Below are positions 20,770-53,253 of a stretch of DNA of 53,261 nt, piece after piece. A program made the position numbers and the translations under genes. The stretch is from positions 1 through 53,261 of the IMG/VR virus record IMGVR_UViG_3300031687_000019; one strand, 5' to 3'. Each line of letters begins with the position of its first letter. Position 1 is the first letter of the stretch. Below the pieces are notes generated by a model. It ran no database searches, was not told the origin of the DNA, and saw only the letters and a list, made by a program, of their open reading frames with translations. The DNA comes from a virus.

Positions 20770-23700
20770 ATGGCACAAGAAATTAAAAACACATTTCTAA
20801 AATCCAAGATGAATAAAGATCTTGACGATAGAATATTGCCTAACGGCGAATATAGAAATGCTCGGAATATATCAGTTGGTAGATCTGAGGATAACGATGT
20901 TGGTGCTCTAGAAAACGTAATTGGGAACAATTTAGTTGCTGGTACCGATATTGAATCAGGATTAACCATTATAGGAATTAAAGAAAGCAATTCTTTAAAT
21001 CAACTTTTTGTATTTCTAACGGACTATAAAGATCCAAATCCCCTCAACCCCACTAACGCACCTACTACTTCAAAGCATTATATTTATTCGTATAATAATA
21101 CAACAGGAGCATATACTAGATTAGTGCAAGGGGAATTTTTAAATTTTTCGACTACAAATAGAATACTAGGTATAAATTTAATTGAAAATTTATTATTTTG
21201 GACAGACAATAGAAATCAGCCTAGAAAAATAAATGTTAATGTAGCAAGAGCTTTTACACCAGGTGGTTTATCTACTGTTAGTGGCGATTATTATACGGAG
21301 GAACACCAAATATCTGTTGCAAAGTATAATCCGTACCAAGCTATAGATCTTTACAATAGAGTTAATTTAAAAGTAAGATCAGGAGCAACAACGACTACTT
21401 TCACTTTAGAAGATACGAGTAGAGCAGAGCTTATTGAATTTATAGGAGCAACAGTTGTTTGCACAGAAACAAACCCTCCAACGCAAGGCGTTAATTTTGT
21501 TGAGGTTGTTAGCATTACTGATTCTTTCAGCTTACCTAATATTGTAACTATAACTGTTTCGCCGGCAATGCAAGCGGCCCCTGCGGTAGGAGATTTTGTT
21601 TCTCTTATACAGTCTACAATGACTAATAAAAACAACGATGCCCAGTGGCCTGGGGATCCGGATTATTTAGAGGACAGATTTGTTAGGTTTAGTTACAGAT
21701 TTAAGTTTGATGATAACGAATACTCTTTAATGGCTCCTTTTACGCAGATAGCATATATTCCAAAACAAAAAGGGTATTTTATTAATGGGGACGAGGACGC
21801 AGCTTATCAATCTACTATAGTTGGATTCATGGAAAACATGGTTCAAAATATAAGTTTAGTTATACCTTTGCCCGCATCTGCAAGTAAAATAATAGCTGAC
21901 TATAAAATTAGCGGAATAGAAATATTATTTAGGGAAAGCGACGGTCTTGCGGTAAAAGTACTTGAAAAAATTTCTGCAAATGAAATTTCAGGAGCGAGTG
22001 GTATAGATAGTTATTACACATACGAATATCAATCAAGAAAGCCATATAGAACTTTACCTGAAGCTCAAACAGTAAGAGTGTTTGATAAAGTGCCTGTTAG
22101 AGCCTTTTCTCAAGAATCAGCGGGTAATAGAATTATATACGGTAATTTTAGAGATCAGCATACTCCTCCTGCAAATATAAATTATAATTGTAGAATAACT
22201 AAAAAGTCTACAACTGGAGCATATAATAATTGGATAGAGTATCCTAATCATTCCGTAAAAAGAAATAGAAATTATCAGGTAGGATTTGTTTTAGCAGACA
22301 AGTTTGGAAGACAATCTCCAGTTTTGCTTTCATCCGTGGGATCGGGTAGCGAAAATAATGGTACATTTTATTCTGGGTCTACAATATACAGCCCTTATGA
22401 TTTACTAAAAACAGATACGGATGTAGATACTTGGTTTGGAGATGCAATACAAGTATTAGTAAATTCACCTATTGAATCTGAAATAGATAGTGCCGCAGGA
22501 ACACCTGGTCTTTATGCTTTAAAGCAACAAAATGCCTCCACCGGAGAAGGTTTTGCTATCACAGCAGGTCTTTCGGTCTCAGGCGCTTCACCTATAACAA
22601 ATAGTACTTGGACGTTCTTTTTAAAAGACACTGTATATCCTAACAACGTTAATATACCTGCTGTAGGCGATTATTTAAGAGGTGCTCGTCAAGACTTTGT
22701 TAAAGTTACAGCTATAACAAACCCTACTTTAAATCAATATATTGTTGTCACGGACGGCAGAGTAAGTGATACCTATTTAAGAACCTTGGAGTTATCCGCT
22801 AGCGCACCGGATTTAAAATTTGCTTACACCATAAACGATTTAGGGTGGTACAGCTATAAGATAGTTGTAAAACAAACCGAACAAGATTACTATAATGTTT
22901 ATTTGCCAGGAATACTTAACGGATACCCTGGACAGAGTGCCGCTGGGGTGGCGGAAGGACCTTTTCCAACAGACGAGGTAAATCTTACTGCCCATACTGT
23001 TTTATTTAATGACAACATAAATAAAATTCCTAGAGATTTAGCCGAGGTTGGTCCTGATCAAAAACAATTTAGAAGTTCCGCAACTCTTTACGGTGTTGTA
23101 TCTAATACAATGATTAATGTATCAGGAACTGGTACTGCTTCCAATACACAATATTACCCGAGGCTTCAGTCCATGGGCCCAAATGCTATTTCGCATACAT
23201 CGACAGCTATTGCTGCAGCAGACGAATTTGATATGGCTTTTACAGATCTTTCTTCAACAACCGGAACCACTGGTATTGTAGGGGGTGATAATGGAAATAA
23301 AGTTTTTTATCAAATAGATACAAAGCCATTAGTAGCAAGGATATCCACCACGGAAAAACCAATAGGGCAAAAAAATATCACAACTGGAGCGGGAACTCCA
23401 TACAATATGCTTCCTTATCTATCTGTCTATGAAACAGAGGCAGTGGAATCTCTTTTAGATATTTATTGGGAAACCACTTCATCTGGATTAATCGTTGATC
23501 TAAATCAAGATGTGGCTTCAACAAATGTTGGTGTAGTTGGTTTTGAAAACCTCAACTGGGAATTTAAAGAAGACACTGTACAAAATCAAGCTGTTACTCC
23601 TTCGTATTTTAGTGCTATAAATAATGAAGGAGATCCTTATTTGGGAGATTTAACGCCTTCTTTAACCAGTATAACAAACGGAGATAATTTAGAAAACACT

Positions 23701-25746
23701 GATTTTGATATTATAAAAGGAATTGCAGGTACTGTTAATGAAGGAAAATTTCAAATTATATATACAAAAGCTGAATCCCCTATTTATGAAGCAGTCAGCC
23801 CTACAAGGGATGTTTATTCCTTTCAAGTAACTCTTACCCCCCCAACTGGGGAACCTTTCGTAATACAGCTTAATGGTGTAGAAGGAGGTTTTGGGGCTTT
23901 AGAAAACATTCAGCCAACAATAAACCAGCCCGGCAATATAACTAACGCTACGCCTTCCACGGCAACGTTAATATCTGTGAGCGATATTGATGGTTTATCT
24001 CCTAAAAACGGTAGTGCTACAGCGGCTGGTGAGAGAACAGGCCTCCGGTTTTTCTTAAGAAAAAACACAAGTGTAGCCGGTAACTCTCTTCCTGATAATT
24101 GGGAAATGAATGAGACCACCGGAAAATTAACCCAACTTACCCCAAACAATGAGTTTGAGGGCAACGGGTTAGCTACATACAATGTAAGATTAACAGTAAC
24201 TGATGCCTTCGGATCAATTACTTCACCTCTTCAGTCTGAAGGATATTCTGCTCTTAGGACGGAAGTAAATTTTAGTATAACACTAAACCCCACTCCATTA
24301 AACACAGGGGCAAAAACAGTCCTTGCGAATTGCGTAGTAAATGGAGGAGGAACTTTTACAAACAACTTACCTACTCAAATATTTCAAGCTAATTATGATG
24401 CATTATTTTCCAATGCTGTAAATGGCATTGTACAGACCCTGCCGGGTGGTGTATTTGGACATTGGAAATGGGGAAGCCCTGACAATAGCCCTCTTGGCAT
24501 AGGCGGTATCAAAAGAGGGCAAAGCGTAACTAGCTGTATTTATTACATAGGAAAGAGTGACCCTTTAGTGGAAGGCAGCGGCGCTAGCAATGAGATACTT
24601 AGCACAAATAAGGGGCTTAATATAAATTTCACTCCTGCCAATAATGACTCTATACCTACGTTTTATCACAAAATAGGTACAGATTCCCATACAAGCGGTG
24701 TAATACATTTTACAATCAATACTTTCTCTCCTAGTAGATTTCAGCAAGTGCCTAATGTATTTGCGGTTCCAGCAGCAAGGTTTTACTACAGACAACCAAC
24801 AGCTGACGACTCAAACCCAGATTGGATACAATTACAAAGAAGTCAAGAAATGAACCAAGTAGGTTCTTCAGGGCCGGATTTTACAGTTTCCCCTAAAAAA
24901 GACGGACCCGCTTTGGTAGAAACTTTTTTGGCCTCTTCCCAAAACACACCATCTTCAGAAGTTACGGTAGATCGAACTATAAGTAATTCACAAGACCAAA
25001 GGGGTGTCTGGGTGCAGACAATGAGAGCATTTGATTTTAATGATTTATATGATTCTAATGCTAGTGGGGCTAGTTCAGCTGCGGGTATTGAATACGCAAT
25101 AACTCTTTTCGGACAACAACAAAATAAGCCTCATTCAAATGCACAACCACCAGGCACAAATAATGGTACTGTGAGATCTTATGTAATAGCGGACGATTTG
25201 AACTTTCCCACCTGTGCAGTATGGCAAGCTACAAATCTTTACACTGCAAATGGAGGAGTACCTGGCAAATTGTTTAAGTATGACACTAGCACTACTGGTA
25301 CCGATAGCCCCACGGCTTGGAGATACATAGACAACGATACTCAGCCAACTCACACCTATAGATTTGCTAGAAGCCCTTATGGTGATTACGTGACTGAGTT
25401 ATACACAAATGCTACAAGTAATGTTTTGTTTATACCCGCAGCAGAAAACCAGAAATGGATAAACATTAAATTAGATAGGGGCCTTTTAAGCCCTGTTCCA
25501 AATCAGTATAATAACTTGGTAGATACCGATGTTTACGGTAACACCGTTCCAGGTCAAAATACTATAGGGCAGGATCTTCAATTTAATGTAGGCTTTTCAA
25601 CTGTCGCAGGTAGAAAAATACCTAGCGGGTATGCTGAAGTTGGAGTAGCCGGTGTGAGGGTATTTGAAGAAGAAAGCTTGCAGTACAATCATTTACAAAA
25701 CTACAGAACAAAGGGAACTTTAAGAGTAGCTAAACCACTCAATTAA
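20770..25746 (+). CDS. Large tail protein, muzzle-like, with cadherin-like domain
   Basis: 1,658 residues. It opens KNTFLKSKMNKDLDDRILPN then GEYRNARNISVGRSE, an opening I associate with the tail 'muzzle' or stabilisation proteins of crAss-like and other podoviruses. WTDNRNQPRKINV near 145 supports this. A cadherin/Ig-like domain lies at about 1040-1175 (ISVSDIDGLSP, then YNVRLTVTDAFGS). The rest is beta-rich. It probably forms the bulk of the short tail nozzle and may touch host carbohydrate. It continues functionally in the next gene, which looks like the second half of the same complex. Confidence 0.7.
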   Translation: MAQEIKNTFLKSKMNKDLDDRILPNGEYRNARNISVGRSEDNDVGALENVIGNNLVAGTDIESGLTIIGIKESNSLNQLFVFLTDYKDPNPLNPTNAPTTSKHYIYSYNNTTGAYTRLVQGEFLNFSTTNRILGINLIENLLFWTDNRNQPRKINVNVARAFTPGGLSTVSGDYYTEEHQISVAKYNPYQAIDLYNRVNLKVRSGATTTTFTLEDTSRAELIEFIGATVVCTETNPPTQGVNFVEVVSITDSFSLPNIVTITVSPAMQAAPAVGDFVSLIQSTMTNKNNDAQWPGDPDYLEDRFVRFSYRFKFDDNEYSLMAPFTQIAYIPKQKGYFINGDEDAAYQSTIVGFMENMVQNISLVIPLPASASKIIADYKISGIEILFRESDGLAVKVLEKISANEISGASGIDSYYTYEYQSRKPYRTLPEAQTVRVFDKVPVRAFSQESAGNRIIYGNFRDQHTPPANINYNCRITKKSTTGAYNNWIEYPNHSVKRNRNYQVGFVLADKFGRQSPVLLSSVGSGSENNGTFYSGSTIYSPYDLLKTDTDVDTWFGDAIQVLVNSPIESEIDSAAGTPGLYALKQQNASTGEGFAITAGLSVSGASPITNSTWTFFLKDTVYPNNVNIPAVGDYLRGARQDFVKVTAITNPTLNQYIVVTDGRVSDTYLRTLELSASAPDLKFAYTINDLGWYSYKIVVKQTEQDYYNVYLPGILNGYPGQSAAGVAEGPFPTDEVNLTAHTVLFNDNINKIPRDLAEVGPDQKQFRSSATLYGVVSNTMINVSGTGTASNTQYYPRLQSMGPNAISHTSTAIAAADEFDMAFTDLSSTTGTTGIVGGDNGNKVFYQIDTKPLVARISTTEKPIGQKNITTGAGTPYNMLPYLSVYETEAVESLLDIYWETTSSGLIVDLNQDVASTNVGVVGFENLNWEFKEDTVQNQAVTPSYFSAINNEGDPYLGDLTPSLTSITNGDNLENTDFDIIKGIAGTVNEGKFQIIYTKAESPIYEAVSPTRDVYSFQVTLTPPTGEPFVIQLNGVEGGFGALENIQPTINQPGNITNATPSTATLISVSDIDGLSPKNGSATAAGERTGLRFFLRKNTSVAGNSLPDNWEMNETTGKLTQLTPNNEFEGNGLATYNVRLTVTDAFGSITSPLQSEGYSALRTEVNFSITLNPTPLNTGAKTVLANCVVNGGGTFTNNLPTQIFQANYDALFSNAVNGIVQTLPGGVFGHWKWGSPDNSPLGIGGIKRGQSVTSCIYYIGKSDPLVEGSGASNEILSTNKGLNINFTPANNDSIPTFYHKIGTDSHTSGVIHFTINTFSPSRFQQVPNVFAVPAARFYYRQPTADDSNPDWIQLQRSQEMNQVGSSGPDFTVSPKKDGPALVETFLASSQNTPSSEVTVDRTISNSQDQRGVWVQTMRAFDFNDLYDSNASGASSAAGIEYAITLFGQQQNKPHSNAQPPGTNNGTVRSYVIADDLNFPTCAVWQATNLYTANGGVPGKLFKYDTSTTGTDSPTAWRYIDNDTQPTHTYRFARSPYGDYVTELYTNATSNVLFIPAAENQKWINIKLDRGLLSPVPNQYNNLVDTDVYGNTVPGQNTIGQDLQFNVGFSTVAGRKIPSGYAEVGVAGVRVFEEESLQYNHLQNYRTKGTLRVAKPLN

Positions 25747-27842: not shown

Positions 27843-28582
27843 TAGTGGCCGCGGGAATCGGCATATTAGGCAGTGTAGCCGGTGGAATTATCGGTGGCAA
27901 AGCCGCTAAAAAAGCAGCAGCAGCAGCGGCAGCAGATAAAGCAAGAATAGGCAGACAAATGGCCCAATTTGAAGCAAATAGGCAGGATGTAACAAATCCT
28001 TTTTCTGATGTAAACTCTTTATCTGGTTTAATAGACGATATGAGGGGTGACCTATCTAATCCCTTTGCTAATCTAGGTGTTGCTACGGGAGCCGCGGAAA
28101 TTCAGATGGAACAAACAGACATAGCGCTAGCTAATACTTTAGATACGCTACAAGCAACCGGCGCAAGTGCGGGAGGGGCTACAGCATTAGCCCAAGCTGC
28201 TAGAGCAAGTAAAAAAGATGTTGCTGCTAATATAGAACAGCAAGAAGCTCAAAATGAAAAAATGAAGGCTCAAGGAGCACAGGATTTGCAAGCAAAAGAA
28301 ATGCAGCTTACTCAAATGGAAATTAGCGAGGAAGGACGTGTGCAAAATGCTCAAGCTCAAGGTAAACAATTTATGTTTAATGCTCAAGAAAACAGGGATA
28401 TGATGACATTAGACAGAATGCAAGGAGGTATTGATCAAGCTAATCAAAACGCAGCAAACGCAAATGCAGCAAAAGCGCAGGCTACCGCGGGCATGATAAG
28501 TGGTATAACATCTTCAGTGGGAGGATTAATGGGATCCGGAGCATTTGCAGAGGGAGGATCTTTAGCACCACCAACCGGCTAA
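27830..28582 (+). CDS. Internal virion / ejection protein, T7 gp14-like
   Basis: 250 residues. The N-terminus GIGILGSVAGGIIGGKAAKK is a Gly-rich hydrophobic segment able to enter a membrane. The rest is Ala/Gln/Met-rich helix (LQATGASAGGATALAQAARA, then a long coiled coil). Proteins of this type are stored in the capsid and injected to form part of the channel through the host envelope. It is the first of three consecutive candidates for such a role. Confidence 0.65.
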   Translation: MSGIIVAAGIGILGSVAGGIIGGKAAKKAAAAAAADKARIGRQMAQFEANRQDVTNPFSDVNSLSGLIDDMRGDLSNPFANLGVATGAAEIQMEQTDIALANTLDTLQATGASAGGATALAQAARASKKDVAANIEQQEAQNEKMKAQGAQDLQAKEMQLTQMEISEEGRVQNAQAQGKQFMFNAQENRDMMTLDRMQGGIDQANQNAANANAAKAQATAGMISGITSSVGGLMGSGAFAEGGSLAPPTG

Positions 28583-30222: not shown

Positions 30223-33200
30223 ATGTACGAGTACTTAATCAACAAAGAAACAGTAATTTTTGAAAACGAGAAAGACATGCTCGCGGGTCTTAAAGCCGCG
30301 GAAGAAGCGGAATATAGTATAGAGCTAATCAGAGATGATAGCATGGCTCAAAAATCAGAGGATACTTCCACGTTTGGCAAGCCTCAAAAAGAAGACACAT
30401 TTGTGTTTGGGAATCCTACCCCAGAAGAGCAGCTACAAGCTACTCAAAGCGAAGCGTCACAAGGAAATTTTACACAAGACCCTGTAGAGAGTGCGGATGC
30501 GGTGTCGGAAACTGTAGCACAAGACGATACGGAATTACCGCAGGAAGATACTTCTTTGGATTTACCAGAAGATGATTTTCAAATTAAATTAGATAAGCTT
30601 AAAGAACTTAAAGACTTTAGAGCTAAATCACCTAATGGCACTCTGCCAACAGATGGAGAGGCGTTTCAAAAGTTAAAAGATTACGACTATAATAAAGATT
30701 TAGGAATAATAAATACTGAAACAAGAGAAAAAGACCCGATAAAACAAGCTGAATTACAAGAATTTAAAGACTTTTCGCAAAACAGTTTAAACTCAGGTAT
30801 ACTACAGCAGCTAAATGTCAAAGGGGTTTCTTTACCAGCTAAAATACAAAACGGGCTTGAAAAAGAATATAGAAAGTATATAAAAGATAATTATGAAAAT
30901 TTTATTACTACTAGAACTGTTGCGGAGGTAGCTGTAAATATTACCAAAGATAAGCAAATGCCAACGGATTTTGCTATTGATCAAATTGTAGCGGAACAGT
31001 TGCAAGGGCTTCAAGAAAAGCAAAATAATGAAGAAAAAGAAAAAGAACAAATATTAGGTAGAGGTGTATCTAAGAACCCTACGCAAAAAGTAATTTCGGC
31101 TATAAAAGGTAGAATAGATAATGCCCCTGCTAACCGAAAACTATTTGGGGCAACAAGCCAAAGAATTGATGCTATTGATAGAAAACTAGCACCCAGTAAT
31201 CTTCTGCCAGACAACGAAAGACTTGCTTTAGAAGATGAAAGAAGAGCGCTAATTATTTCATCTGCTGAGGCTTTTGAAAGAATGAATCCTGCGGGATCCG
31301 CAAACCCATATAGGGACGGGTTTGAGTACGCTGGTAAAAGCAAAAAAAATAAACTAACTCAATTTTTTAATTTAGAAACGGGAGCGCAGGTAATGCCCGC
31401 GGAAGCTGCTTTAAGCAATGAAAAGCTTATTACCGCGCCTCCGGAGATGATTGCTGAAGCTGAAAGATTAGCCAAGCTGGCTAGAGAACCATTAAAAGCT
31501 GCTTTTTATTACAATGTTCTGAAAGAGACCCAAATAAACGAAGATCTTAAAAAAACATTTGATTTTAATCCAAACAAAGCTTACGAGCGGAGAGTTAATA
31601 AAGGCGAAGGAATCGGGCAAGGCCCAATGGATAAATCCCGTTTAAGAGTGTACCTTGAATCTAAGGGTTATACGCCAAATGAGAACGGCTTGTATACAAA
31701 TGTAACAGCTGAAGATTTATTACCTTTAAAAGACATGAACCTATCCGGAAGGTTTGGTATATTTAGTGAAGACGGCGGCTCTATATTAGACGACGCATTC
31801 GTCCCACGAGAAGGAGAATTGTCTACCCCAGCTATGTTTATACAAAATTTAGCGGAGGAAAGAATGCAAAACTCAATAGAGGGTAATGCACTAAACAGGG
31901 CTTACTTGTTTAACATCGATCCCGGCTCAGAAAAACTAGACGCAGGAGACTACGTAGCAACTTTTGCTAAAAAAGCCGCGGCCGGCACATTGGATTTACT
32001 GCCTGACAGCATGACTTCAAGGTACATTGATGAATTGCCTTTAACTCAGCGAGAAATGCTAGATAATTCCGAACAAATGTTAATGAATGCTGGTATTGAA
32101 ATAACTGAAGAGCAAAAAGAAAATTTTGCTAGAGGCTATGGCATGAAGGCGGTAGAACAACTAGGTGATTTTGCTCCTATGCTTATAAATTTTGCTTTTC
32201 TTAATAAAGCAGCAGGAGCCGCTGGAATGACTAGAATGATCGGTACTTTAATGAAGGGAGGGCCGAAACAAAAAGCAATGGGGCTAATTTTTGGCGCTTT
32301 ACTTGAAGAAGTAAAATTTGAAGCGGCCACTTATGGTGAAGCTAAAACACTAGGGGGTACTGGATTTTTTGCAGGGGGCCAAGTAGCTAATGCTTTACTA
32401 AAAGGAAGAATGGGTGCGTTGGCTAGAAAAATATTAGGAGGAGCCGTCGGAGGTACAGCAGGTAGTGAAACTGCTAAAGTTGCTGAATCTATGGCAGAAG
32501 ATCTTATGGGTGACAAAGATTTTAAAACCAGTATGCAAGAATATTACGGTGATATTGACGAAGTTACCGAGAGGCTAATAATTGACGGTATAGTTTTTGG
32601 TGTATTAGGTATGACCCATGCTAAAAAAATAGACTTCATGAAGCAAAGTGCTAAGCAAAAACTTTCTTCAAAGCTAAATCGAGAGATTAATGATATGTCT
32701 TCCATACTTACTCCAAAAGAACTTAGTAAAAAGAAAAACTTGAAAGCTGAACTTGATCAAGACCTAGCGCTTGATAACGAGGCGTTTAGCAAATTAGCTA
32801 TAGGAGATCAAATAAAAAATGCTAAAGCTGCTAAAGCTAGACTAAATGAACTAGATGCGCAACTAAAAAGTGATCCTTTTGAAGGCGGACTAACGTCTTC
32901 TGCAGCTAAATTTGAGATGTGGGCAGAAAGAGGAATGCTGGAAAATATAATTTCTCGCGTTGACGCAAATAAAATGGCGGCCAGAAAGTCAATAAACGAT
33001 CAAGCCAATAACTTTAAAGAAAGCATAGGCAAGCCTGATATGCCTGTTATTATAACAGAGAATGGTGAGGGGATGGCCCTTGGTAACAAGGGTGAATTTC
33101 AGTTTGAATCAGTTAACGGCAAGCCGTCCATAATAGTAGATTTATCTTTATACCAGCCTGGTGTTCTAAGTCAAGAGGGCTTTCATGCACAAATGGCATT

Positions 33201-36200
33201 TGCTTTTGGGAAAGGATCCGGACTTAAAAATGTAAGCCTTGAAGTTGCTAAAAAGCTAAGAGAAAAAATAGAACCCGCTGTAGAAAAAGCTTTAGCAAAT
33301 GAAAGATTTGTTATAAGCGACGGTGAAGGCGGAACTAAAAATGGTACATTTAAAGAAGCTATAGAGGATGCTTACAGGGAAGATCCCGCTAAAACAGATG
33401 AAGAATACGTAGCTAACATTATAGAATTTCTGGGTAATAAAAAATACAGAAACCTTTTACTAGATAATTCTTTAATGGGTAAGCTTAATAAAGCTGTAAG
33501 GAATACCGCTAAAGATTTAGGCATAAGTAAACAAAATGTTGATCAGAACTTAACTACAGCTGAACAAACATTAGACTTCTTATATACTTTATCAGATTTT
33601 TCACAGGGCCCCGGAAGAGGTAAGAAGAACTTTGCTGCGTTTAAAAACCTTTCAATTGATGGGACTAAGCTGGTTGATATGAAAACCAATACGGAAATTA
33701 CAACTGCAAAGGAAATTAAAAAAGACATTTCAGCATCTAAAGAAATAAAACCTGAAGAGAAAAAAGATATATTTTCAAAAGCAACAAGTGTATACGAAAA
33801 GATGATGGCTGACGGAGAAAGCATGGACCAAATCGGTGTGATGGTTGGATACGAATTTCAACCTCTAGTAAGATCTAAGCTGAGGTCTTATCTTACTGTC
33901 AAAGCGCTAGACAATGTTTCGGATCAAGTTATAGAAGACATCGTTTCAGATGTTACATTGGGTGATGGAAAAGGAGGTTCTCAAAATATACCAGGACTAG
34001 TTAAATCATACAAAGAAAGTGGTGAAGCCAGTTTAACTTCTTATATTTTTGGTCAATTAAATAACAAAATATTAGGCGCACTTCAACAACCAGCATATCG
34101 CGATATATTCAACACTTTTTCTATAGATGCTAATCCGGGTCAAGCTGAAAGACTAGCCGAAGGAGAAGGTTTAGGAGGCGAAGGGATTTCTGATGGGTAC
34201 GTAGATTTATCTTCACCCGAACAAAATGTTAGGATAAACAGGATTAAAGCAGAAGTTACGCTTAAATTGCCTGCTGAGTTAAAAGAAGATATTAATAGCA
34301 TAGGAGAGCGTCTTTTAATGTCTACCCCGTTAAAAAATCTTGAAGCTAAACAGGAAGGTAGTATAAAATTACCAAGCGGTAAGACAGCTGAAATCGTTAT
34401 ATCAAAAAGTGAGCAAGCCACTATTGAAATAGAGGGGGAACCCTCTGAAACTGTAAGAGTTAGATCTCCTAAAATTCTAGAAGAAAAATTCGGAACAGGT
34501 AAAAAGTCTTTTGTAAAAAAGCCTACTACTAAAGAAAAGCTTTATAGAGACGGCATTGACTTAATATACCCTAAGCTAGAAAAAGCTGTTGGGGGATTAA
34601 AAGACAATTATACTGCTACCCCGGAATACGAGGCTTTTGTAGACAATGCATATCCTTTGCTTAAAAATTATCTAAGCCAATCGGCTATTAACAAAAGATT
34701 TGCAGACTTCAAAGAACCAGCTATAGATAAAAAAACAGGCAAAATACTTAAGAAAAAAACTTCCGCAGGAGGAACCGTATTTACAAAAAAAGATGTAAAG
34801 TTAGCTGAGTGGAGAGGATACTTTTTAGGAAATGGTAGCAAGCGTATAGACGGGCGTAGACGATCTATAATAGAGGCATTTTCAGGAGAATTTGTATTTG
34901 ATTCTGTAATGGAATCATTATCTAATGAAGCCATAAGAAAGCAAATAGAATCAAGACAAGAAGATATTGGTGTTGAGCTACTAGATAATTTTGTAACAGT
35001 TATTGCTAAAGAGATAGATCGTGGCAACCCAGGGGTTATGGCATCTAAGATAATAAAAATTGCTAATGAGTTTGGTGTAGACCCTTACAACATGCTTTTC
35101 GATAAAAACAATAACCTAAGACCTATAGATGAAATAGCAATGATGCCTGGTGGGCCTGAGGCTTTAGGTGAATTATATAGAGGGGCACAAGCTGAGCTTA
35201 CAAGGCAACTACAAAACAGAGCGAAGGATCAGGAAATAAACACGGTAGATAAACTTGATAAATACTATAAGGACAACCCTGAGTTATTTACTCCTGAAAT
35301 GCGAGAAGCGGTAAAAGAAGTAAGAACATTGTCAATGGAAGATTTCAAAAATTTTAAGGATCAAACCGACTTTTTAGTGACATTATTTCCAGAAAAATTT
35401 TCTGAATTTTCTTTAGAAACCGTGGATGTTGGTGTGCCAAATAGTTTTTTATCTCAAATATTTTCAGCAAACTCTAGAACAAACAAGGCTACGGAAGCTT
35501 TTTACATTAATAAAGGTTTATCAGCGGAAGCCGCAAAGAAGAAAGCTACCATTAACAGGGAAGAGTTTACTAAAAAAATTAAAGGCAAAATAGGCACAAA
35601 CTATAATGCACCTGAAATGAAGCAAGCTAGAGAGGCGTGGGAAAGAGTAATGGAATTAGCTGAGGAAAACAATATTGATCGAAAAATTACTAATAAAAGC
35701 GTTAAAGTACAAAGAGGTATTACCATACTTAAGCAGGCAAAAGAGTATCAGGATGCAGTTGAAGCTATAATTTACTTGACAACAAATTTAACTACAAAGC
35801 AAAGAAAGGCTGAAATTAGCAAAATAGAGGGTTACGATGCTTACAAAAAGGCTATGGAATTACAAGTAGCTACATTAGATGCGATTTTACTTACATTTGG
35901 GGCAGCTTCCAAGATGGTAAAAGGAACTGCTGCAGAGCAAAAGGCTAGTAGAGATAATATATTCAAGGCTTTAGGCACTATGCTTTTAAACAACGATAAA
36001 GGGTTTAGAAATTTGTCACCTGAAATATACTACGAAATAAGAGATGGAGGTATAAAGGATCCTAAAAACGAACATTTGTTATCTAAAGCGGAATTTGCTA
36101 CTAGGGTTTTAACAGCATTTAATGAAGGAAGATTAAATACATTAGAAGAAGTAAAAGAAGTTTCTTCTGAATACGTTAGTTTAGTTGGGGAGCGAGCAGT

Positions 36201-39200
36201 GCAAAAAGCCGCAGATGCTTTTATGGGACCTACTGCGGAAAACAACAAAGAAGCAAAAATGCTAGATTTTGTTAAAGGAGAAACGAACAGACAATTTTCT
36301 ACAGCAGATTTAATTAAGCTAGATTCCGTTATAAACTTAATAACAGGTAAATCCGCTTTGCAGGAAATGATAGAAGCTCAAGCTAGGAAAGCATTAAACA
36401 TGCCCCTCCGCAGTTCAACAGAAGCTCTGTCTAATAACAATAAAATTTTGCTAGAATCAGGAATGATGACCACGGACAGCAAAACTACAATTTCCGCTTC
36501 TAAAAAAATAATAAATCTTGACCAAGCTTTTGAAAACGGTAAAGATCCAAATAAAAAACCTAAAGGTATAAGTGTATTTGATTTTGATGATACATTAGCA
36601 CGTACTAATAGTAAAGTGCTATACACAATGCCTGACGGTACTAAAGGTAAATTAAATGCAACCGAGTTTGCAAAAAAATCTGAAGCACTTGAGGCCAATG
36701 GTGCTGAGTTTGATTTCAGTCAATTTAGCGAAGTTGTTAAAGGTAAGTTAGGTCCATTGTTTTCTGAGGCTAAAAAGAAAGAAGGTAAGTATACTAATAA
36801 AGATGTATTTGTTTTAACCGCAAGGCCAGCTAATTCAGCTAAGGCTATATATGAGTTTTTAAAATCGGAGGGGCTAGAAATACCAATTGATAACATTGTA
36901 GGCTTAGGCGACGGCGCCGCTAAAGCTAAAGCAGAGTGGATGATAGGTAAAGTAGCGGAAGGATATAACGATTTCTATTTTGCTGATGATGCCATTAAGA
37001 ATGTAGAAGCTGTCCGTGATGCTTTAGGATTGTTCGATGTGAAGTCCAAAGTACAACAAGCTATAATGGCTTCTAAAAAGATAACTCTCGAGCGAGGCTT
37101 GTCCGAAATGATTGAACGTAAAAAAGGGATATCTTCTAAAGAACCCTTATCCGCCGCAATAGCATCTAACCTAGGTAAAAAGAAAGGTCGATTTGATTGG
37201 TTTATTCCGCCTAATGCAGAAGACTTTGCTGGATTAATGTACAAATTTTACGGCAAAGGAAAGCAAGGCGATAAGGATATGGCATTAATTAAAGAAACTT
37301 TAATAAGACCATTCAATCGAGCGGAAAACGCAATAAGTACATATAAGCAAAACTTAGGTAATGATTACGCCTCTTTAGAATCTCAAATGAAAGATCTTAA
37401 AATCAGCATGACCAAAGAAACCAAAGACAGCCTAGAGCAAGCTAATGTGAACGCTGATCAAGCTACCCGGGTTTTTATATATAACAAGCTGGGATATAAA
37501 ATACCAGGATTAGAAAAAAATGAAATAGCAAACATATCTAAAATAGTTAATGGAGACGCAAGGCTTTCTGCTTACGCAAAAGGTGTTATGGGTATAACCA
37601 AAACAAAAGAAGTATTTCCTAGACCAGGTGAAACGTGGTACTCCAGTAATATACGCTACGAATTGTTTAAGTATTCTACCGAGGGAGTTAGAGGTCATTT
37701 CTTAAAAGACTGGCAAAAGAACGTTGATGAAATGTTTACTGAAGAAAACTTTAGCAGAATCGAAGCAGGGTACGGCAAGAATTACGTTAACAATTTAAAA
37801 GAAACGCTAGCCCGAATGAAAACCGGTAAAACAAGATCTGCTGATTTAGGTAAGGATGTTCAAGCTGGTATGGATTACGTCAACGGATCTGTAGGGGTTA
37901 TAATGTTTTTAAATACCAGGTCCGCTGTATTGCAGACAATATCCGCGGTCAATTATGTTAACTGGAGTGATAACAACCCATTACAAATAGGTAAAGCTGT
38001 TGCTAAACCAAAAGAGTGGGGTAAAACGTTTATGGAAATATACAACTCTGATTTTTTAAAGCAAAGAAGAGGAGGGCTTGAAATAAATGTGGAAGAAGCA
38101 GAAATCGCTAAAGCTGTAGAAAGAAGTAAAGGTAATGCTAGAAACTTATATGACAGCATGATAAAAATAGGATTTAAACCTACACAAATGGCGGATAGTT
38201 TTGCTATTGCATTTGGAGGAACTCCGTTTTTAATGAACAGAACCGCAACTTATGTTAAGCAAGGCTTATCCATGGAGGCCGCAAAGAAAAGAGCTTTTGA
38301 AGATTTTAGAGAGGTTTCTGAGGAATCGCAGCAATCATCAAGGCAGGATAGAGTGTCTAATATACAGACAGGTGTTGCGGGTAGATTGATATTTGCGTTT
38401 GCAAATACCCCAATGCAAATGTCTCGTATGACTAAAAAAGCTACGCTCGATTTAGCTAACAATAGAGGAGATGCTAAAACAAATATATCTAAGATGCTCT
38501 ACTATGGTGCTGTGCAAAGTTATATATTCTACGCGCTACAGCAATCTCAGTTTTTAAGATTGTTCGGTGGAGACGATGAAGATATGACCCAAGAGGAAAA
38601 AGATTTTAACAAAGCAAACAATGAAAAAAAGAATACTAAAATAGCAAGTAGTATGTTTGACAGTTTTATATCTGGATCAGGATCCCCGGGTAAAGTAGCA
38701 ATAACTGCTAAAAACACTATACTAGAGTATTATAAACAAAAAGAAAAAGGGTATAAAGCAGATTACGGTGATGTATTAAACGCAGCATTTTCTATATCAC
38801 CTCCGTTGTCTTCTAAAAGTAAAAAGGTTTACTCAGCTTATAAAAGCTATAAGCACTTTTCAACTAAAACAGGACAAAAAGAATTAGCAGAGTACGGGCA
38901 GTATGCTTTTGACAATCCAATGTTAATGGCTAACGCTAAAGTTTTTTCTTCCGTTAGTAATGTACCAGCCGATAGACTAATACAGAAAGTAAACAATCTT
39001 TATTCTGCGTTTACTGATGAAACTTTAACCCCTATACAAAGTATTGCATTGGCTGCTGGTTGGGACAAGTGGAGTTTAGGTTTATATGATCCAGACTTTA
39101 TGACTGCTGATGAAATTGCTGGGAATAAAGCAAAAAGAAAAGAACAATTAAAGAAAGAAAAAATAGCTAAAAAAGAAGCAGCTATAAATTCTTACGATAT

Positions 39201-39423
39201 GAAGATGAGTGAACCTGAAAGAAGAGACATACTTAAGGTGCTTTCAAAAAAGCAGCAGATGGACTCCTTAGGTGCTTTAGAGGTAAGTATAAAAAGAAAA
39301 AGAGAATTGTATAAAATGAAGGAGATAAATAGAATAGAAGAAATAATACGATTACAAAACAAAAGACAATTTTATATAGACACAAAAAACATAAATAAAA
39401 CTAGACAAGATTCTTTAAAATAA
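30223..39423 (+). CDS. Giant internal virion protein with embedded HAD domain
   Basis: 3,066 residues, 17% of the window. Residues 1-130 are acidic and disordered. 645-755 is Gly/Ala-rich and hydrophobic (AFLNKAAGAAGMTRMIGTLM). Near 980, LSQEGFHAQMAFAFG resembles a zincin helix with His-Glu changed to Gln-Glu. At about 2112-2300 there is a clear HAD phosphohydrolase-type domain: FDFDDTLA (motif I, about 2118), VFVLTARP (motif II, about 2195), KAEWMIG (motif III Lys, about 2234) and YFADDA (motif IV, about 2250). The last 500 residues (SAVLQTISAVNYVNWSDNNP, then FAFANTPMQMSRMTKKATLD) recall the C-terminal region of other very large phage proteins. It is probably packed in the capsid and ejected with DNA. 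Confidence 0.8.
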   Translation: MYEYLINKETVIFENEKDMLAGLKAAEEAEYSIELIRDDSMAQKSEDTSTFGKPQKEDTFVFGNPTPEEQLQATQSEASQGNFTQDPVESADAVSETVAQDDTELPQEDTSLDLPEDDFQIKLDKLKELKDFRAKSPNGTLPTDGEAFQKLKDYDYNKDLGIINTETREKDPIKQAELQEFKDFSQNSLNSGILQQLNVKGVSLPAKIQNGLEKEYRKYIKDNYENFITTRTVAEVAVNITKDKQMPTDFAIDQIVAEQLQGLQEKQNNEEKEKEQILGRGVSKNPTQKVISAIKGRIDNAPANRKLFGATSQRIDAIDRKLAPSNLLPDNERLALEDERRALIISSAEAFERMNPAGSANPYRDGFEYAGKSKKNKLTQFFNLETGAQVMPAEAALSNEKLITAPPEMIAEAERLAKLAREPLKAAFYYNVLKETQINEDLKKTFDFNPNKAYERRVNKGEGIGQGPMDKSRLRVYLESKGYTPNENGLYTNVTAEDLLPLKDMNLSGRFGIFSEDGGSILDDAFVPREGELSTPAMFIQNLAEERMQNSIEGNALNRAYLFNIDPGSEKLDAGDYVATFAKKAAAGTLDLLPDSMTSRYIDELPLTQREMLDNSEQMLMNAGIEITEEQKENFARGYGMKAVEQLGDFAPMLINFAFLNKAAGAAGMTRMIGTLMKGGPKQKAMGLIFGALLEEVKFEAATYGEAKTLGGTGFFAGGQVANALLKGRMGALARKILGGAVGGTAGSETAKVAESMAEDLMGDKDFKTSMQEYYGDIDEVTERLIIDGIVFGVLGMTHAKKIDFMKQSAKQKLSSKLNREINDMSSILTPKELSKKKNLKAELDQDLALDNEAFSKLAIGDQIKNAKAAKARLNELDAQLKSDPFEGGLTSSAAKFEMWAERGMLENIISRVDANKMAARKSINDQANNFKESIGKPDMPVIITENGEGMALGNKGEFQFESVNGKPSIIVDLSLYQPGVLSQEGFHAQMAFAFGKGSGLKNVSLEVAKKLREKIEPAVEKALANERFVISDGEGGTKNGTFKEAIEDAYREDPAKTDEEYVANIIEFLGNKKYRNLLLDNSLMGKLNKAVRNTAKDLGISKQNVDQNLTTAEQTLDFLYTLSDFSQGPGRGKKNFAAFKNLSIDGTKLVDMKTNTEITTAKEIKKDISASKEIKPEEKKDIFSKATSVYEKMMADGESMDQIGVMVGYEFQPLVRSKLRSYLTVKALDNVSDQVIEDIVSDVTLGDGKGGSQNIPGLVKSYKESGEASLTSYIFGQLNNKILGALQQPAYRDIFNTFSIDANPGQAERLAEGEGLGGEGISDGYVDLSSPEQNVRINRIKAEVTLKLPAELKEDINSIGERLLMSTPLKNLEAKQEGSIKLPSGKTAEIVISKSEQATIEIEGEPSETVRVRSPKILEEKFGTGKKSFVKKPTTKEKLYRDGIDLIYPKLEKAVGGLKDNYTATPEYEAFVDNAYPLLKNYLSQSAINKRFADFKEPAIDKKTGKILKKKTSAGGTVFTKKDVKLAEWRGYFLGNGSKRIDGRRRSIIEAFSGEFVFDSVMESLSNEAIRKQIESRQEDIGVELLDNFVTVIAKEIDRGNPGVMASKIIKIANEFGVDPYNMLFDKNNNLRPIDEIAMMPGGPEALGELYRGAQAELTRQLQNRAKDQEINTVDKLDKYYKDNPELFTPEMREAVKEVRTLSMEDFKNFKDQTDFLVTLFPEKFSEFSLETVDVGVPNSFLSQIFSANSRTNKATEAFYINKGLSAEAAKKKATINREEFTKKIKGKIGTNYNAPEMKQAREAWERVMELAEENNIDRKITNKSVKVQRGITILKQAKEYQDAVEAIIYLTTNLTTKQRKAEISKIEGYDAYKKAMELQVATLDAILLTFGAASKMVKGTAAEQKASRDNIFKALGTMLLNNDKGFRNLSPEIYYEIRDGGIKDPKNEHLLSKAEFATRVLTAFNEGRLNTLEEVKEVSSEYVSLVGERAVQKAADAFMGPTAENNKEAKMLDFVKGETNRQFSTADLIKLDSVINLITGKSALQEMIEAQARKALNMPLRSSTEALSNNNKILLESGMMTTDSKTTISASKKIINLDQAFENGKDPNKKPKGISVFDFDDTLARTNSKVLYTMPDGTKGKLNATEFAKKSEALEANGAEFDFSQFSEVVKGKLGPLFSEAKKKEGKYTNKDVFVLTARPANSAKAIYEFLKSEGLEIPIDNIVGLGDGAAKAKAEWMIGKVAEGYNDFYFADDAIKNVEAVRDALGLFDVKSKVQQAIMASKKITLERGLSEMIERKKGISSKEPLSAAIASNLGKKKGRFDWFIPPNAEDFAGLMYKFYGKGKQGDKDMALIKETLIRPFNRAENAISTYKQNLGNDYASLESQMKDLKISMTKETKDSLEQANVNADQATRVFIYNKLGYKIPGLEKNEIANISKIVNGDARLSAYAKGVMGITKTKEVFPRPGETWYSSNIRYELFKYSTEGVRGHFLKDWQKNVDEMFTEENFSRIEAGYGKNYVNNLKETLARMKTGKTRSADLGKDVQAGMDYVNGSVGVIMFLNTRSAVLQTISAVNYVNWSDNNPLQIGKAVAKPKEWGKTFMEIYNSDFLKQRRGGLEINVEEAEIAKAVERSKGNARNLYDSMIKIGFKPTQMADSFAIAFGGTPFLMNRTATYVKQGLSMEAAKKRAFEDFREVSEESQQSSRQDRVSNIQTGVAGRLIFAFANTPMQMSRMTKKATLDLANNRGDAKTNISKMLYYGAVQSYIFYALQQSQFLRLFGGDDEDMTQEEKDFNKANNEKKNTKIASSMFDSFISGSGSPGKVAITAKNTILEYYKQKEKGYKADYGDVLNAAFSISPPLSSKSKKVYSAYKSYKHFSTKTGQKELAEYGQYAFDNPMLMANAKVFSSVSNVPADRLIQKVNNLYSAFTDETLTPIQSIALAAGWDKWSLGLYDPDFMTADEIAGNKAKRKEQLKKEKIAKKEAAINSYDMKMSEPERRDILKVLSKKQQMDSLGALEVSIKRKRELYKMKEINRIEEIIRLQNKRQFYIDTKNINKTRQDSLK

Positions 39424-52293: not shown

Positions 52294-52326
52294 TATTATC
52301 TATAGTCGATCGTTTTTGTTATGCAA
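52294..52326 (-). promoter_or_regulatory. Family B promoter for the genes from 52268 leftward
   Basis: TTGCATAAC, AAAAACGA (52317-52310), 8 nt, AGATAATA (52301-52294), then TAAC. It is the best match to the copy at 47868: both have TTGCATAACAAAAACGA. It overlaps the stop of the gene at 52319. Confidence 0.75.
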
Positions 52327-52675
52327 CGTCTATTACTTTTTGTGACACATTGTCATATATTGCTAATTGTTTGTTAAATTTAGCTATTTTCATCGCCTGT
52401 TTAAGATCGCTTACACTTAAGCCGTAGTCAAGAAAATATATATCGTCTTCACTTAACCAACCGCCGAATAATTCGTGCTGACTGTTAAATGCATCATCTA
52501 CTATTTGCCACGTATTTTTTGAGAATAGCGATGGATTTGCAGTTTTAAGTACATTTTTTATACTAACAGTATAGCGCTCTAGTCTGGTGTTATTTACATT
52601 GTGAGTAAAATCTGCTTTTGCATTAATTTTGTTAACGACATCTTGCAGTGGTGATATTTCAATTAGTCTTCCCAT
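52319..52675 (-). CDS. Unknown protein (118 aa)
   Basis: VVNKINAKADFTHNVNNTRL, then LFSKNTWQIVDDAFNSQHEL and DLKQAMKIAKFNKQLAIYDN. Mixed helix and strand, no motif recognised. It lies just downstream of the tRNA-like cluster on the same strand, and its last codons are part of a promoter. Confidence 0.6.
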   Translation of the reverse strand: MGRLIEISPLQDVVNKINAKADFTHNVNNTRLERYTVSIKNVLKTANPSLFSKNTWQIVDDAFNSQHELFGGWLSEDDIYFLDYGLSVSDLKQAMKIAKFNKQLAIYDNVSQKVIDVA

Positions 52676-52693: not shown

Positions 52694-52761
52694 TAACCAG
52701 TGAGGAATCGAACCTCATACTCGTCAGTAGTACGCTCGGTCGGAGCATCCATACCTGGTTT
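52694..52761 (-). tRNA. tRNA-like element A (68 nt), abnormal
   Basis: 5' AAACCAG pairs with 3' CTGGTTA (6 of 7), and a T arm TGAGG-TTCGATT-CCTCA is perfect. A stem GTACT-ACTGACG-AGTAT would place anticodon TGA with C at position 33, but another fold (ATGCT-CCGACCG-AGCGT) is equally good. There is no normal D arm or variable loop and no encoded CCA. A real tRNA of unusual shape, a decoy, or a remnant. Confidence 0.4.
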
Positions 52762-52763
52762 AA

Positions 52764-52823
52764 TAACCGCAGGGAGATTCGAACTCCTTCACTAGCTAAG
52801 TGAGTGGCCTTCCTATCGCGGTT
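52764..52823 (-). tRNA. tRNA-like element B (60 nt), D-arm reduced
   Basis: Seven acceptor pairs AACCGCG/TGCGGTT, a two-pair GG-AAGG-CC in place of the D arm, an anticodon-like hairpin TCAC-TTAGCTA-GTGA (T33 present, triplet AGC), and a T arm GGAG-TTCGAAT-CTCC. No variable loop. At 60 nt it is below the usual tRNA size. Shares its T arm and acceptor exactly with element C. Confidence 0.42.
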
Positions 52824-52839
52824 GTTCATATCTTATTAG

Positions 52840-52896
52840 TAACCGCAGGGAGATTCGAACTCACCTCACTAGCTAAGTGGCGTTCCTTTCGCGGTT
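52840..52896 (-). tRNA. tRNA-like element C (57 nt), duplicate of B
   Basis: Same acceptor AACCGCG/TGCGGTT, GG-AACG-CC, loop TTAGCTA in a shorter stem (CAC/GTG) and T loop TTCGAAT. The last 22 nt are identical to element B. The T stem is weaker (GAG/CTC plus a mismatch). B and C are a tandem duplication 76 nt apart. C may be the decaying copy. Confidence 0.38.
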
Positions 52897-52995
52897 AGCG
52901 GCTATTACGTGATCATTAATCGTATCTTTCGCCTAGTAGTTATCTTCGCGTGTTCTCTTTGAGTATTTTTAGGATTATACCTTGCATTATTACTC

Positions 52996-53054
52996 ATCAC
53001 ACTCGCGATCGGACTTGCACCGTGCCAGCGGTTAATTACACCGCCGCTCGTGAT
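52996..53054 (-). ncRNA. Possible fourth tRNA-like element D (59 nt)
   Basis: ATCAC/GTGAT ends, a perfect hairpin GCGGT-GTAATTA-ACCGC (T33, triplet AAT) and CGG-TGCAAGT-CCG resembling a T arm. The acceptor has only five pairs and no D arm is possible. Weakest of the four. The stretch 52900-52995 between it and element C shows no clear structure. Confidence 0.25.
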
Positions 53055-53055
53055 A

Positions 53056-53253
53056 CTACTTTTCTGTTAGTCCTGCTAATACTTCGTTATATGCGTAGTC
53101 CATAGCTTCTACAAATTGACTGTCATTCATGTTGTCTATTAGCTCGTCAGGCATCTGCCATGAAACAGTTTCACGCAGGTGATCTTCAATATAGTGTACA
53201 ATACCCTCTGCTACAGCATTGAGTTCGTTTTTTTGGTGTTCAGTTAGTGTCAT
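53056..53253 (-). CDS. Small acidic protein (65 aa)
   Basis: MTLTEHQKNELNAVAEGIVH, then EDHLRETVSWQMPDELIDNM and DYAYNEVLAGLTEK. Helical and acidic. The leader reads TTAACTATG, like the other small leftward genes. It lies at the right end; its promoter is not in the window to its right but could be the family B site at 124-156 if the ends join. No family recognised. Confidence 0.6.
   Translation of the reverse strand: MTLTEHQKNELNAVAEGIVHYIEDHLRETVSWQMPDELIDNMNDSQFVEAMDYAYNEVLAGLTEK

What the first reader, a model, noticed from the sequence alone, without database searches (positions are those of the whole stretch)
52694..53054. Array of unusually short tRNA-like elements without normal D arms
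Three elements of 57-68 nt (and a weaker fourth) on the same strand have clear T arms with TTCGAAT or TTCGATT and paired acceptor ends, yet almost no D arm and no variable loop. Two share an identical 22-nt 3' part. Bacterial and phage tRNAs are normally 73 nt or more; such shapes are known mainly from animal mitochondria. They could be minimal tRNAs, decoys for anticodon nucleases or tRNA-based host defences, or decayed copies. They would be cotranscribed with early genes.
Basis: partly seen in the sequence, partly recalled or inferred. Interest (0 to 1): 0.7.

Follow-up and report, generated by a model that had tools for sequence, protein, structure and literature searches.

The report
Phage tRNA-like RNAs lacking anticodon arms
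The window holds three tiny RNAs shaped like the top half of a tRNA, with no anticodon arm; they belong to a large, apparently unannotated family of phage RNAs in which a constant tRNA-like shell is either empty or carries one of many swappable RNA inserts.

Summary
Three of the four elements are real; the fourth is something else. E1 (52694-52760), E2 (52764-52823) and E3 (52840-52896), minus strand, each have a paired acceptor stem, a D-loop-like GG strand without D stem, and a T arm. Standard tRNA and Rfam searches miss them. They are not D-armless mitochondrial-type tRNAs: E1's apparent anticodon arm is, in 65 relatives, a GACG-tetraloop hairpin whose loop-closing pair covaries, so there is no anticodon.

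A covariance model built without the window finds E1 at 79.3 bits (E 1.3e-19). Relatives show a constant shell around hypervariable, swappable inserts; one class is a shrunken flavobacterial tmRNA. A 40-43-nt insert-free form lies between phage genes in at least 120 IMG/VR stretches; 87 of 96 distinct hits have a perfect acceptor helix, against 5% in controls. Similar RNAs occur in cultured phages: Flavobacterium FL-1 and Lactococcus sk1 and p2. In Lactococcus phage Phi19 one is a tRNA-Trp that lost exactly its anticodon region.

Best mechanism (inferred, about 0.5): RNase P/RNase Z-recognised punctuation and end-protecting shells, like mitochondrial t-elements. The fourth element is a three-way-junction RNA module. 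No function has been measured.

The parts
52694..52760 (-). E1: class A tRNA-like element, 67 nt. Acceptor AACCAG/CTGGTT, D-loop strand GTATGG, insert hairpin ATGCTC-CGACC-GAGCGT in place of the anticodon arm, variable-arm-like hairpin TACT-GACG-AGTA, T arm TGAGG-TTCGATT-CCTCA, A73 then C74-T-A-A.
   Evidence: Model R2 trained without the window: 79.3 bits, E 1.3e-19, full length; the minimum-energy fold gives exactly these four helices; compensatory changes in relatives.
52764..52823 (-). E2: class B tRNA-like element, 60 nt. Acceptor AACCGCG/TGCGGTT, ATAGGAA strand, hairpin TCACT-TAGCT-AGTGA, T arm with one A-C mismatch.
   Evidence: Sequence; counterparts L002 and L357 (AAAGGAAC form, perfect T stem) and L359 (close to E2, same T-stem mismatch).
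52840..52896 (-). E3: class B tRNA-like element, 57 nt, duplicate of E2 sharing 23 nt at the 3' end; T stem with one U-C mismatch; its lowest-energy fold is not the tRNA-like one, so it may be decaying.
   Evidence: L002 holds a single B copy with a perfect T stem (AGGAG/CTCCT).
52936..53059 (-). E4 corrected: three-way-junction RNA module, closing stem GTAGT/ACTAC, arm with GTAATTAA loop, core GCACGGTGCAAGTCCGAT, variable third arm. Not tRNA-like; its 5' end overlaps the stop codon of the 65-aa gene.
   Evidence: Ten copies; closing stem GTAGT/ACTAC, ACAGT/ACTGT, ACGGT/ACCGT; fold z -2.3.
52900..52933 (-). Conserved hairpin GGCGAAAGATACGATTAATGATCACGTAATAGCC between E4 and E3, recurring in relatives.
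53056..53253 (-). Flanking upstream gene, 65 aa, same strand, function unknown.
52319..52675 (-). Flanking downstream gene, 118 aa, same strand, start codon 18 nt after E1.

Best explanation
The elements are anticodon-less tRNA-like RNAs: the top half of a tRNA (acceptor stem, D-loop GG strand, T arm), the part by which RNase P, RNase Z and the CCA-adding enzyme know a tRNA. Shown here by comparison: the structure, its covariation, the absence of an anticodon arm, position between co-directional phage genes, and inserts that are exchanged while the shell stays constant. Inferred: in the polycistronic early transcript the host tRNA-processing enzymes cut at both ends of each element. This separates the neighbouring messages (punctuation) and releases a short RNA with protected ends. 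The empty forms are punctuation or end protection only; in the forms with inserts the shell also carries and stabilises an RNA payload (hairpins of unknown target). The shells come from tRNAs that lost the anticodon region and, for one class, from a tmRNA that lost its tag reading frame and pseudoknots.
For: On 28 elements of one length: 120 cells with double changes versus 33 in shuffles, but these were chosen for pairing. Inserts: 27 of 35 class C1 inserts are closed by >=5 bp versus 4.6% of shuffled inserts; 26 of 52 class C inserts share >=18 nt with places outside such shells. Class A: nearest D-loop anchor gives a 6/6 acceptor in 57 of 65. Position: 59 of 73 insert-free elements lie between genes on the same strand, 1 between genes on the opposite strand; 79% intergenic versus 31% for random 41-mers. 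3' flank A73-C74-W75-A76 is 95-100% conserved per position in classes A and C1 and resembles the flank of the phages' own tRNAs. Origins: Lactococcus phage Phi19 has a 48-nt element identical to a skunavirus tRNA-Trp except for removal of 23 nt holding the anticodon arm and one change turning an acceptor G.U into G-C; class C2 scores 53.1 bits with Rfam tmRNA (cut-off 47) with 304 model positions bridged by 12 nt, and shares TGGTTTTGAC with Flavobacterium tmRNA. Precedent: t-elements cut by RNase P/RNase Z and CCA-tailed (PMC11658184, PMC4326828); RNase P also cuts pre-tmRNA and phage M3 and C4 RNAs (PMC11143913).
Against: No expression, cleavage, CCA-addition or aminoacylation data were available for any of these phages. 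Punctuation alone does not explain the elaborate, swapped inserts, nor why only some gene junctions carry an element. E2 and E3 have T-stem mismatches. The insert-free model R1 finds only E1's T arm in the window, so the link between the window's classes and the 40-nt form is architectural, not detectable sequence homology. 20% of insert-free elements were not scored as intergenic with crude gene calls.
Confidence: 0.5

Rival explanations
1. Decoys: stable acceptor/elbow mimics that absorb host defence enzymes or toxins acting on tRNA acceptor ends or elbows (not anticodon nucleases).
For: Acceptor, elbow GG and T arm are kept while decoding parts are lost; several copies per phage in the early region; hypervariable inserts would suit an arms race.
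Against: No anticodon, so anticodon nucleases are unlikely as the target. Acceptor sequences are free to vary (59 different), so no particular tRNA is mimicked. Placement between co-directional genes is not needed for a decoy.
Confidence: 0.15
2. Payload RNAs first: the inserts are regulatory or protein-binding RNAs and the shell is only a stabilising scaffold with no role in cutting messages.
For: Insert modules recur with different closing helices, inside and outside shells; engineered tRNA scaffolds stabilise inserts (own knowledge).
Against: The most widespread form has no insert.
Confidence: 0.15
3. Aminoacylated carriers: class C shells (G3.U70, A73) are charged with alanine like tmRNA and deliver alanine, or rescue ribosomes, without a tag.
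For: G3.U70 and A73 are present in nearly all class C1-C3 shells; class C2 is a shrunken tmRNA.
Against: Most class M and all class A/B acceptors lack G3.U70, including the window's own; no tag reading frame; SmpB binding untested.
Confidence: 0.12
4. Decaying tRNA genes with no function.
For: E2/E3 T-stem mismatches; Phi19 tRNA-Trp anticodon deletion; presence and absence differ between close relatives (L002 lacks E1).
Against: Acceptor helices stay perfectly paired through dozens of different sequences, acceptor changes are compensated, and the sk1-type element is in 206 Lactococcus phage records.
Confidence: 0.05
5. Integration (attP) sites that copy the 3' half of host tRNA genes.
For: T arm plus acceptor 3' strand resemble the part of tRNA genes used as attB.
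Against: attP needs no paired 5' acceptor strand, yet it is present and covaries; several different copies per phage; the ten window proteins scanned include no integrase.
Confidence: 0.01

Closest known systems
t-elements (plant mitochondria; upstream of 5S rRNA in Haloferax)
   Same: tRNA-like elements lying between genes that are cut by RNase P and RNase Z and define transcript ends; CCA-tailed but not charged in Arabidopsis (PMC11658184, PMC4326828).
   Different: Those are tRNA relatives in organelles and archaea; here phages carry many, with a 40-nt insert-free form and exchangeable inserts. Cutting is not shown here.
tmRNA (SsrA), tRNA-like domain
   Same: Acceptor stem, D-loop without D stem, T arm, anticodon arm replaced by other RNA; class C2 matches Rfam RF00023 above its cut-off; G3.U70 in class C.
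   Different: 79 nt instead of about 398 nt: no tag reading frame and no pseudoknots. The window's own elements do not match the tmRNA model.
D-armless mitochondrial tRNAs (nematodes, mites)
   Same: Short, no D arm, clear T arm.
   Different: Those keep an anticodon arm and decode; these have none.
Non-tRNA phage substrates of RNase P (C4 antisense RNA, M3 RNA)
   Same: Phage RNAs that are not tRNAs but are cut by RNase P (PMC11143913).
   Different: Individual RNAs; no family of shells with variable inserts, to my knowledge.
Phage tRNA genes and arrays
   Same: The same region of relatives holds normal initiator-like tRNA-Met and tRNA-Gln genes with a similar 3' flank.
   Different: Those have all four arms and are found by ARAGORN; these are not.

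Membership tests
Canonical tRNA | Cloverleaf with anticodon arm, found by ARAGORN/Rfam RF00005 | tested here: not met
   0 genes; no Rfam hit in the array at E<=10.
D-armless mitochondrial-type tRNA | Conserved anticodon arm with 7-nt loop | tested here: not met
   Hairpin has a 4-nt GACG loop closed by a covarying pair; insert-free forms have no anticodon arm; mitochondrial-mode ARAGORN unspecific.
tmRNA | tRNA-like domain without D stem | tested here: met
   Architecture of all classes; class C2 53.1 bits with RF00023. Met by relatives; the window's elements share the layout only.
tmRNA | Tag reading frame and pseudoknots | tested here: not met
   C2 is 78-80 nt, 304 model positions bridged by 12 nt.
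tmRNA | Alanine identity G3.U70 and A73 | tested here: inconclusive
   Present in nearly all class C shells, absent from the window's A and B classes (C3-G70).
t-element | tRNA-like fold between genes on the transcribed strand | tested here: met
   59 co-directional versus 1 opposite of 73; window array between two same-strand genes.
t-element | Cleavage by RNase P and RNase Z | not testable with these tools
   No RNA data; only the tRNA-like 3' flank supports it.
attP in tRNA gene | Only the 3' half of a tRNA copied, with an integrase nearby | tested here: not met
   5' acceptor strand present and covarying; no integrase among the ten window proteins scanned.

The most novel reading that the evidence does not exclude
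Phages use a general class of anticodon-less tRNA-like shells, arising repeatedly from tRNAs and tmRNA, as a cassette system: host tRNA-maturation enzymes cut and trim the shells and add CCA, releasing a rapidly exchanging repertoire of structured payload RNAs that act on host functions or defences during early infection.
Probability: 0.35. Interest if true: 0.92.

Novelty: new variant of a known kind. Interest (0 to 1): 0.8.

Why it matters
A tRNA without its decoding half, kept under selection in many phage genomes and missed by the tRNA and RNA-family annotation used here, would show that phages use the tRNA maturation machinery for something other than translation. It is directly testable, because copies occur in laboratory phages (Lactococcus sk1 and p2, Flavobacterium FL-1). 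It also gives natural examples of the tRNA-scaffold trick used in RNA engineering, a minimal natural candidate substrate for RNase P, RNase Z and CCA addition (40 nt), and an apparent case of tRNA genes losing just their anticodon region.

Tried and rejected
Mitochondrial-type D-armless tRNA: rejected (no conserved anticodon arm; ARAGORN -mt gives 11 scattered hits in the window). E4 as a tRNA: rejected, it is a three-way junction. tRNA introns: rejected, because insert-free forms leave no anticodon arm. An upstream conserved stretch (CACAAAACAGGTAATACAATACAAATCGTC...) first taken for a large RNA core turned out to code for the end of a conserved 62-aa protein. Known Rfam RNAs in relatives: only tRNA and tmRNA stand out. 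Bacterial hosts by class A motif: none in 84,980 genomes; insert-free motif: 10 of 29 distinct bacterial hits with a paired acceptor, mostly in MAG contigs that may be phage. Closing helices of class A inserts: no clear excess at the very ends (8 of 55 versus 10%). A first class A search was wrong by a too strict pattern and was repeated. Sharing of 14-mers between inserts is partly chance and was replaced by 18-mers. Papers: ten searches of the open-licence PMC library found no description of such elements in phages; subscription papers and preprints were not searchable.

Full report
WHAT IS THERE. The window is an IMG/VR virus record of a phage with a T7-type primase-helicase, terminase, portal, GroEL, ribonucleotide reductase and a Crassvirus muzzle protein match above the Pfam cut-off, so probably Crassvirales-related. 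Between two minus-strand genes (53253-53056 and 52675-52319) lie, in transcription order, a three-way-junction module (53059-52936), a hairpin (52933-52900) and three tRNA-like elements E3, E2, E1. ARAGORN finds no tRNA and Rfam has no hit in the array.

RELATIVES. The helicase gene brought in 80 relatives. In the same early region they have ordinary initiator-like tRNA-Met and tRNA-Gln genes and many elements with a constant shell and a variable middle. Classes: A, AACTAGGTATGG...[insert]...TACYGACGRGTATGAGGTTCGATTCCTCACTAGTTA (E1 belongs here; motif in 71 stretches); B, AACCGCGAAAGGAAC...

IS IT MORE THAN CHANCE. The class M motif specifies only the D-loop strand and T loop. Of 96 distinct viral hits, 87 have an exact acceptor helix of at least 6 bp; exchanging flanks between hits gives 5.2%. 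There are 59 different acceptor sequences. In an ungapped set of 28, chosen for pairing, all six acceptor pairs and four of five T-stem pairs have changes on both sides. Class A: taking the nearest D-loop anchor upstream, 57 of 65 have a 6/6 acceptor; the pair closing the GACG loop is T-A 30, C-G 30, T.G 2; in a 13-sequence alignment 7 pairs have double changes versus 2.6 in shuffles. Model R2, trained without the window, finds E1 at full length with 79.3 bits. Class C1: 27 of 35 inserts are closed by at least 5 bp versus 4.6% of shuffles.

NO ANTICODON. The hairpin that might pass for an anticodon arm in E1 is TACY-GACG-RGTA in relatives; the Y-R pair adjoining the loop covaries, so the loop has 4 nt. 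In class B the corresponding loop is TAGCT or GACG. Class M has only 9-10 nt between acceptor and T stem. So the elements cannot decode. They are the top half of a tRNA with the elbow GG kept.

INSERTS. The same insert modules appear with different closing helices in different shells and free-standing: 26 of 52 class C inserts share at least 18 nt with places outside class C shells, e.g. AACCGCGGCGTAAGCAAAGGT in class A and class C. The insert is therefore exchangeable and the shell constant.

ORIGINS. Class C2 gives 53.1 bits with Rfam tmRNA, above its cut-off of 47, with 304 model positions bridged by 12 nt; in four bacterial genomes used for comparison all places other than the true tmRNA score 25.1 bits or less. 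Flavobacterium tmRNA begins GGGGTCGACTGGTTTTGACAG, C2 GGGGGTGATATGGTTTTGACG. In skunaviruses, Phi19 carries GCGAGCATAGTATAGTGGTAAACGTGGGTTCGATTCCTGCTGCTCGTG, which is the tRNA-Trp of related phages (e.g. RH6) minus 23 nt containing the anticodon arm, with one change that strengthens the acceptor. A second 48-nt element, AGCGGTATAGTCTAATGGTAAACGTGGGTTCGATTCCTACTACTGCTA in sk1, has 68-nt versions in phi7 and 30804 and homologues in 206 Lactococcus phage records. Model R1 finds a 41-nt element in Flavobacterium phage FL-1 at 47.2 bits.

POSITION AND ENDS. Class M elements lie between genes on the same strand in 59 of 73 cases and on the opposite strand in 1; 58 of 73 are intergenic against 31% of random 41-mers nearby. 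The 3' flank reads A-C-(T/A)-A in classes A and C1 at 95-100% per position; the phages' own tRNA genes have a similar flank. In sk1 the annotated 'putative terminator for middle transcripts' is exactly the T arm of a 54-nt element.

HOW IT MOST LIKELY WORKS. Shown: structure, covariation, position, exchange of inserts, lack of anticodon. Inferred: RNase P cuts before, RNase Z after, CCA is added; neighbouring messages are separated and the element survives as a small RNA, with its insert where there is one. This is how t-elements are processed in plant mitochondria and upstream of the Haloferax 5S rRNA (PMC11658184, PMC4326828); RNase P is known to cut pre-tmRNA and phage M3 and C4 RNAs (PMC11143913). 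In Arabidopsis t-elements are CCA-tailed but not charged, which I expect for classes A, B and M; class C, with G3.U70 and A73, may be charged with alanine (own knowledge of AlaRS identity). What the inserts do is open.

LIMITS. E2 and E3 carry T-stem mismatches and may be decaying duplicates. That class A/B and class M are one kind rests on shared architecture, not sequence similarity.

Noticed in passing
window 20770-25746: 1658-aa protein matches Pfam crAss_MUZ (Crassvirus muzzle) above cut-off; the phage looks like a small-genome relative of Crassvirales.
   Followed up: partly
window 30223-39423: A 3066-aa open frame with no Pfam match at E<=0.05.
   Followed up: no
L012 1486-1674, L043 2370-2558, L074 423-611 and others: A conserved 62-aa protein with a CxC...CxxC zinc-finger-like pattern and basic tail lies just upstream of the RNA region in relatives (132 loci); no Pfam family reaches its cut-off.
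   Followed up: partly
L360 3891-3909 (sk1 27890-27908): The annotated 'putative terminator for middle transcripts' of Lactococcus phage sk1 coincides exactly with the T arm of a 54-nt tRNA-like element.
   Followed up: yes
L365 695-742 (Lactococcus phage Phi19): A tRNA-Trp gene reduced to 48 nt by loss of the anticodon region with the acceptor helix kept.
   Followed up: yes
window 52936-53059; L357, L044, L154, L313: A three-way-junction RNA module with variable third arm, sometimes in tandem (L357); no Rfam match for the window copy. Other recurring RNA modules (GCGAATAAATAAC...; GATAATGCAAGT...CTAAAAACACTC; GGGATCGTTATGAACTC) occur nearby in relatives.
   Followed up: partly
L043 2805-2878, L073 2755-2827 and others: Phage initiator-like tRNA-Met genes whose anticodon stem lacks the usual three G-C pairs in several copies.
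   Followed up: no
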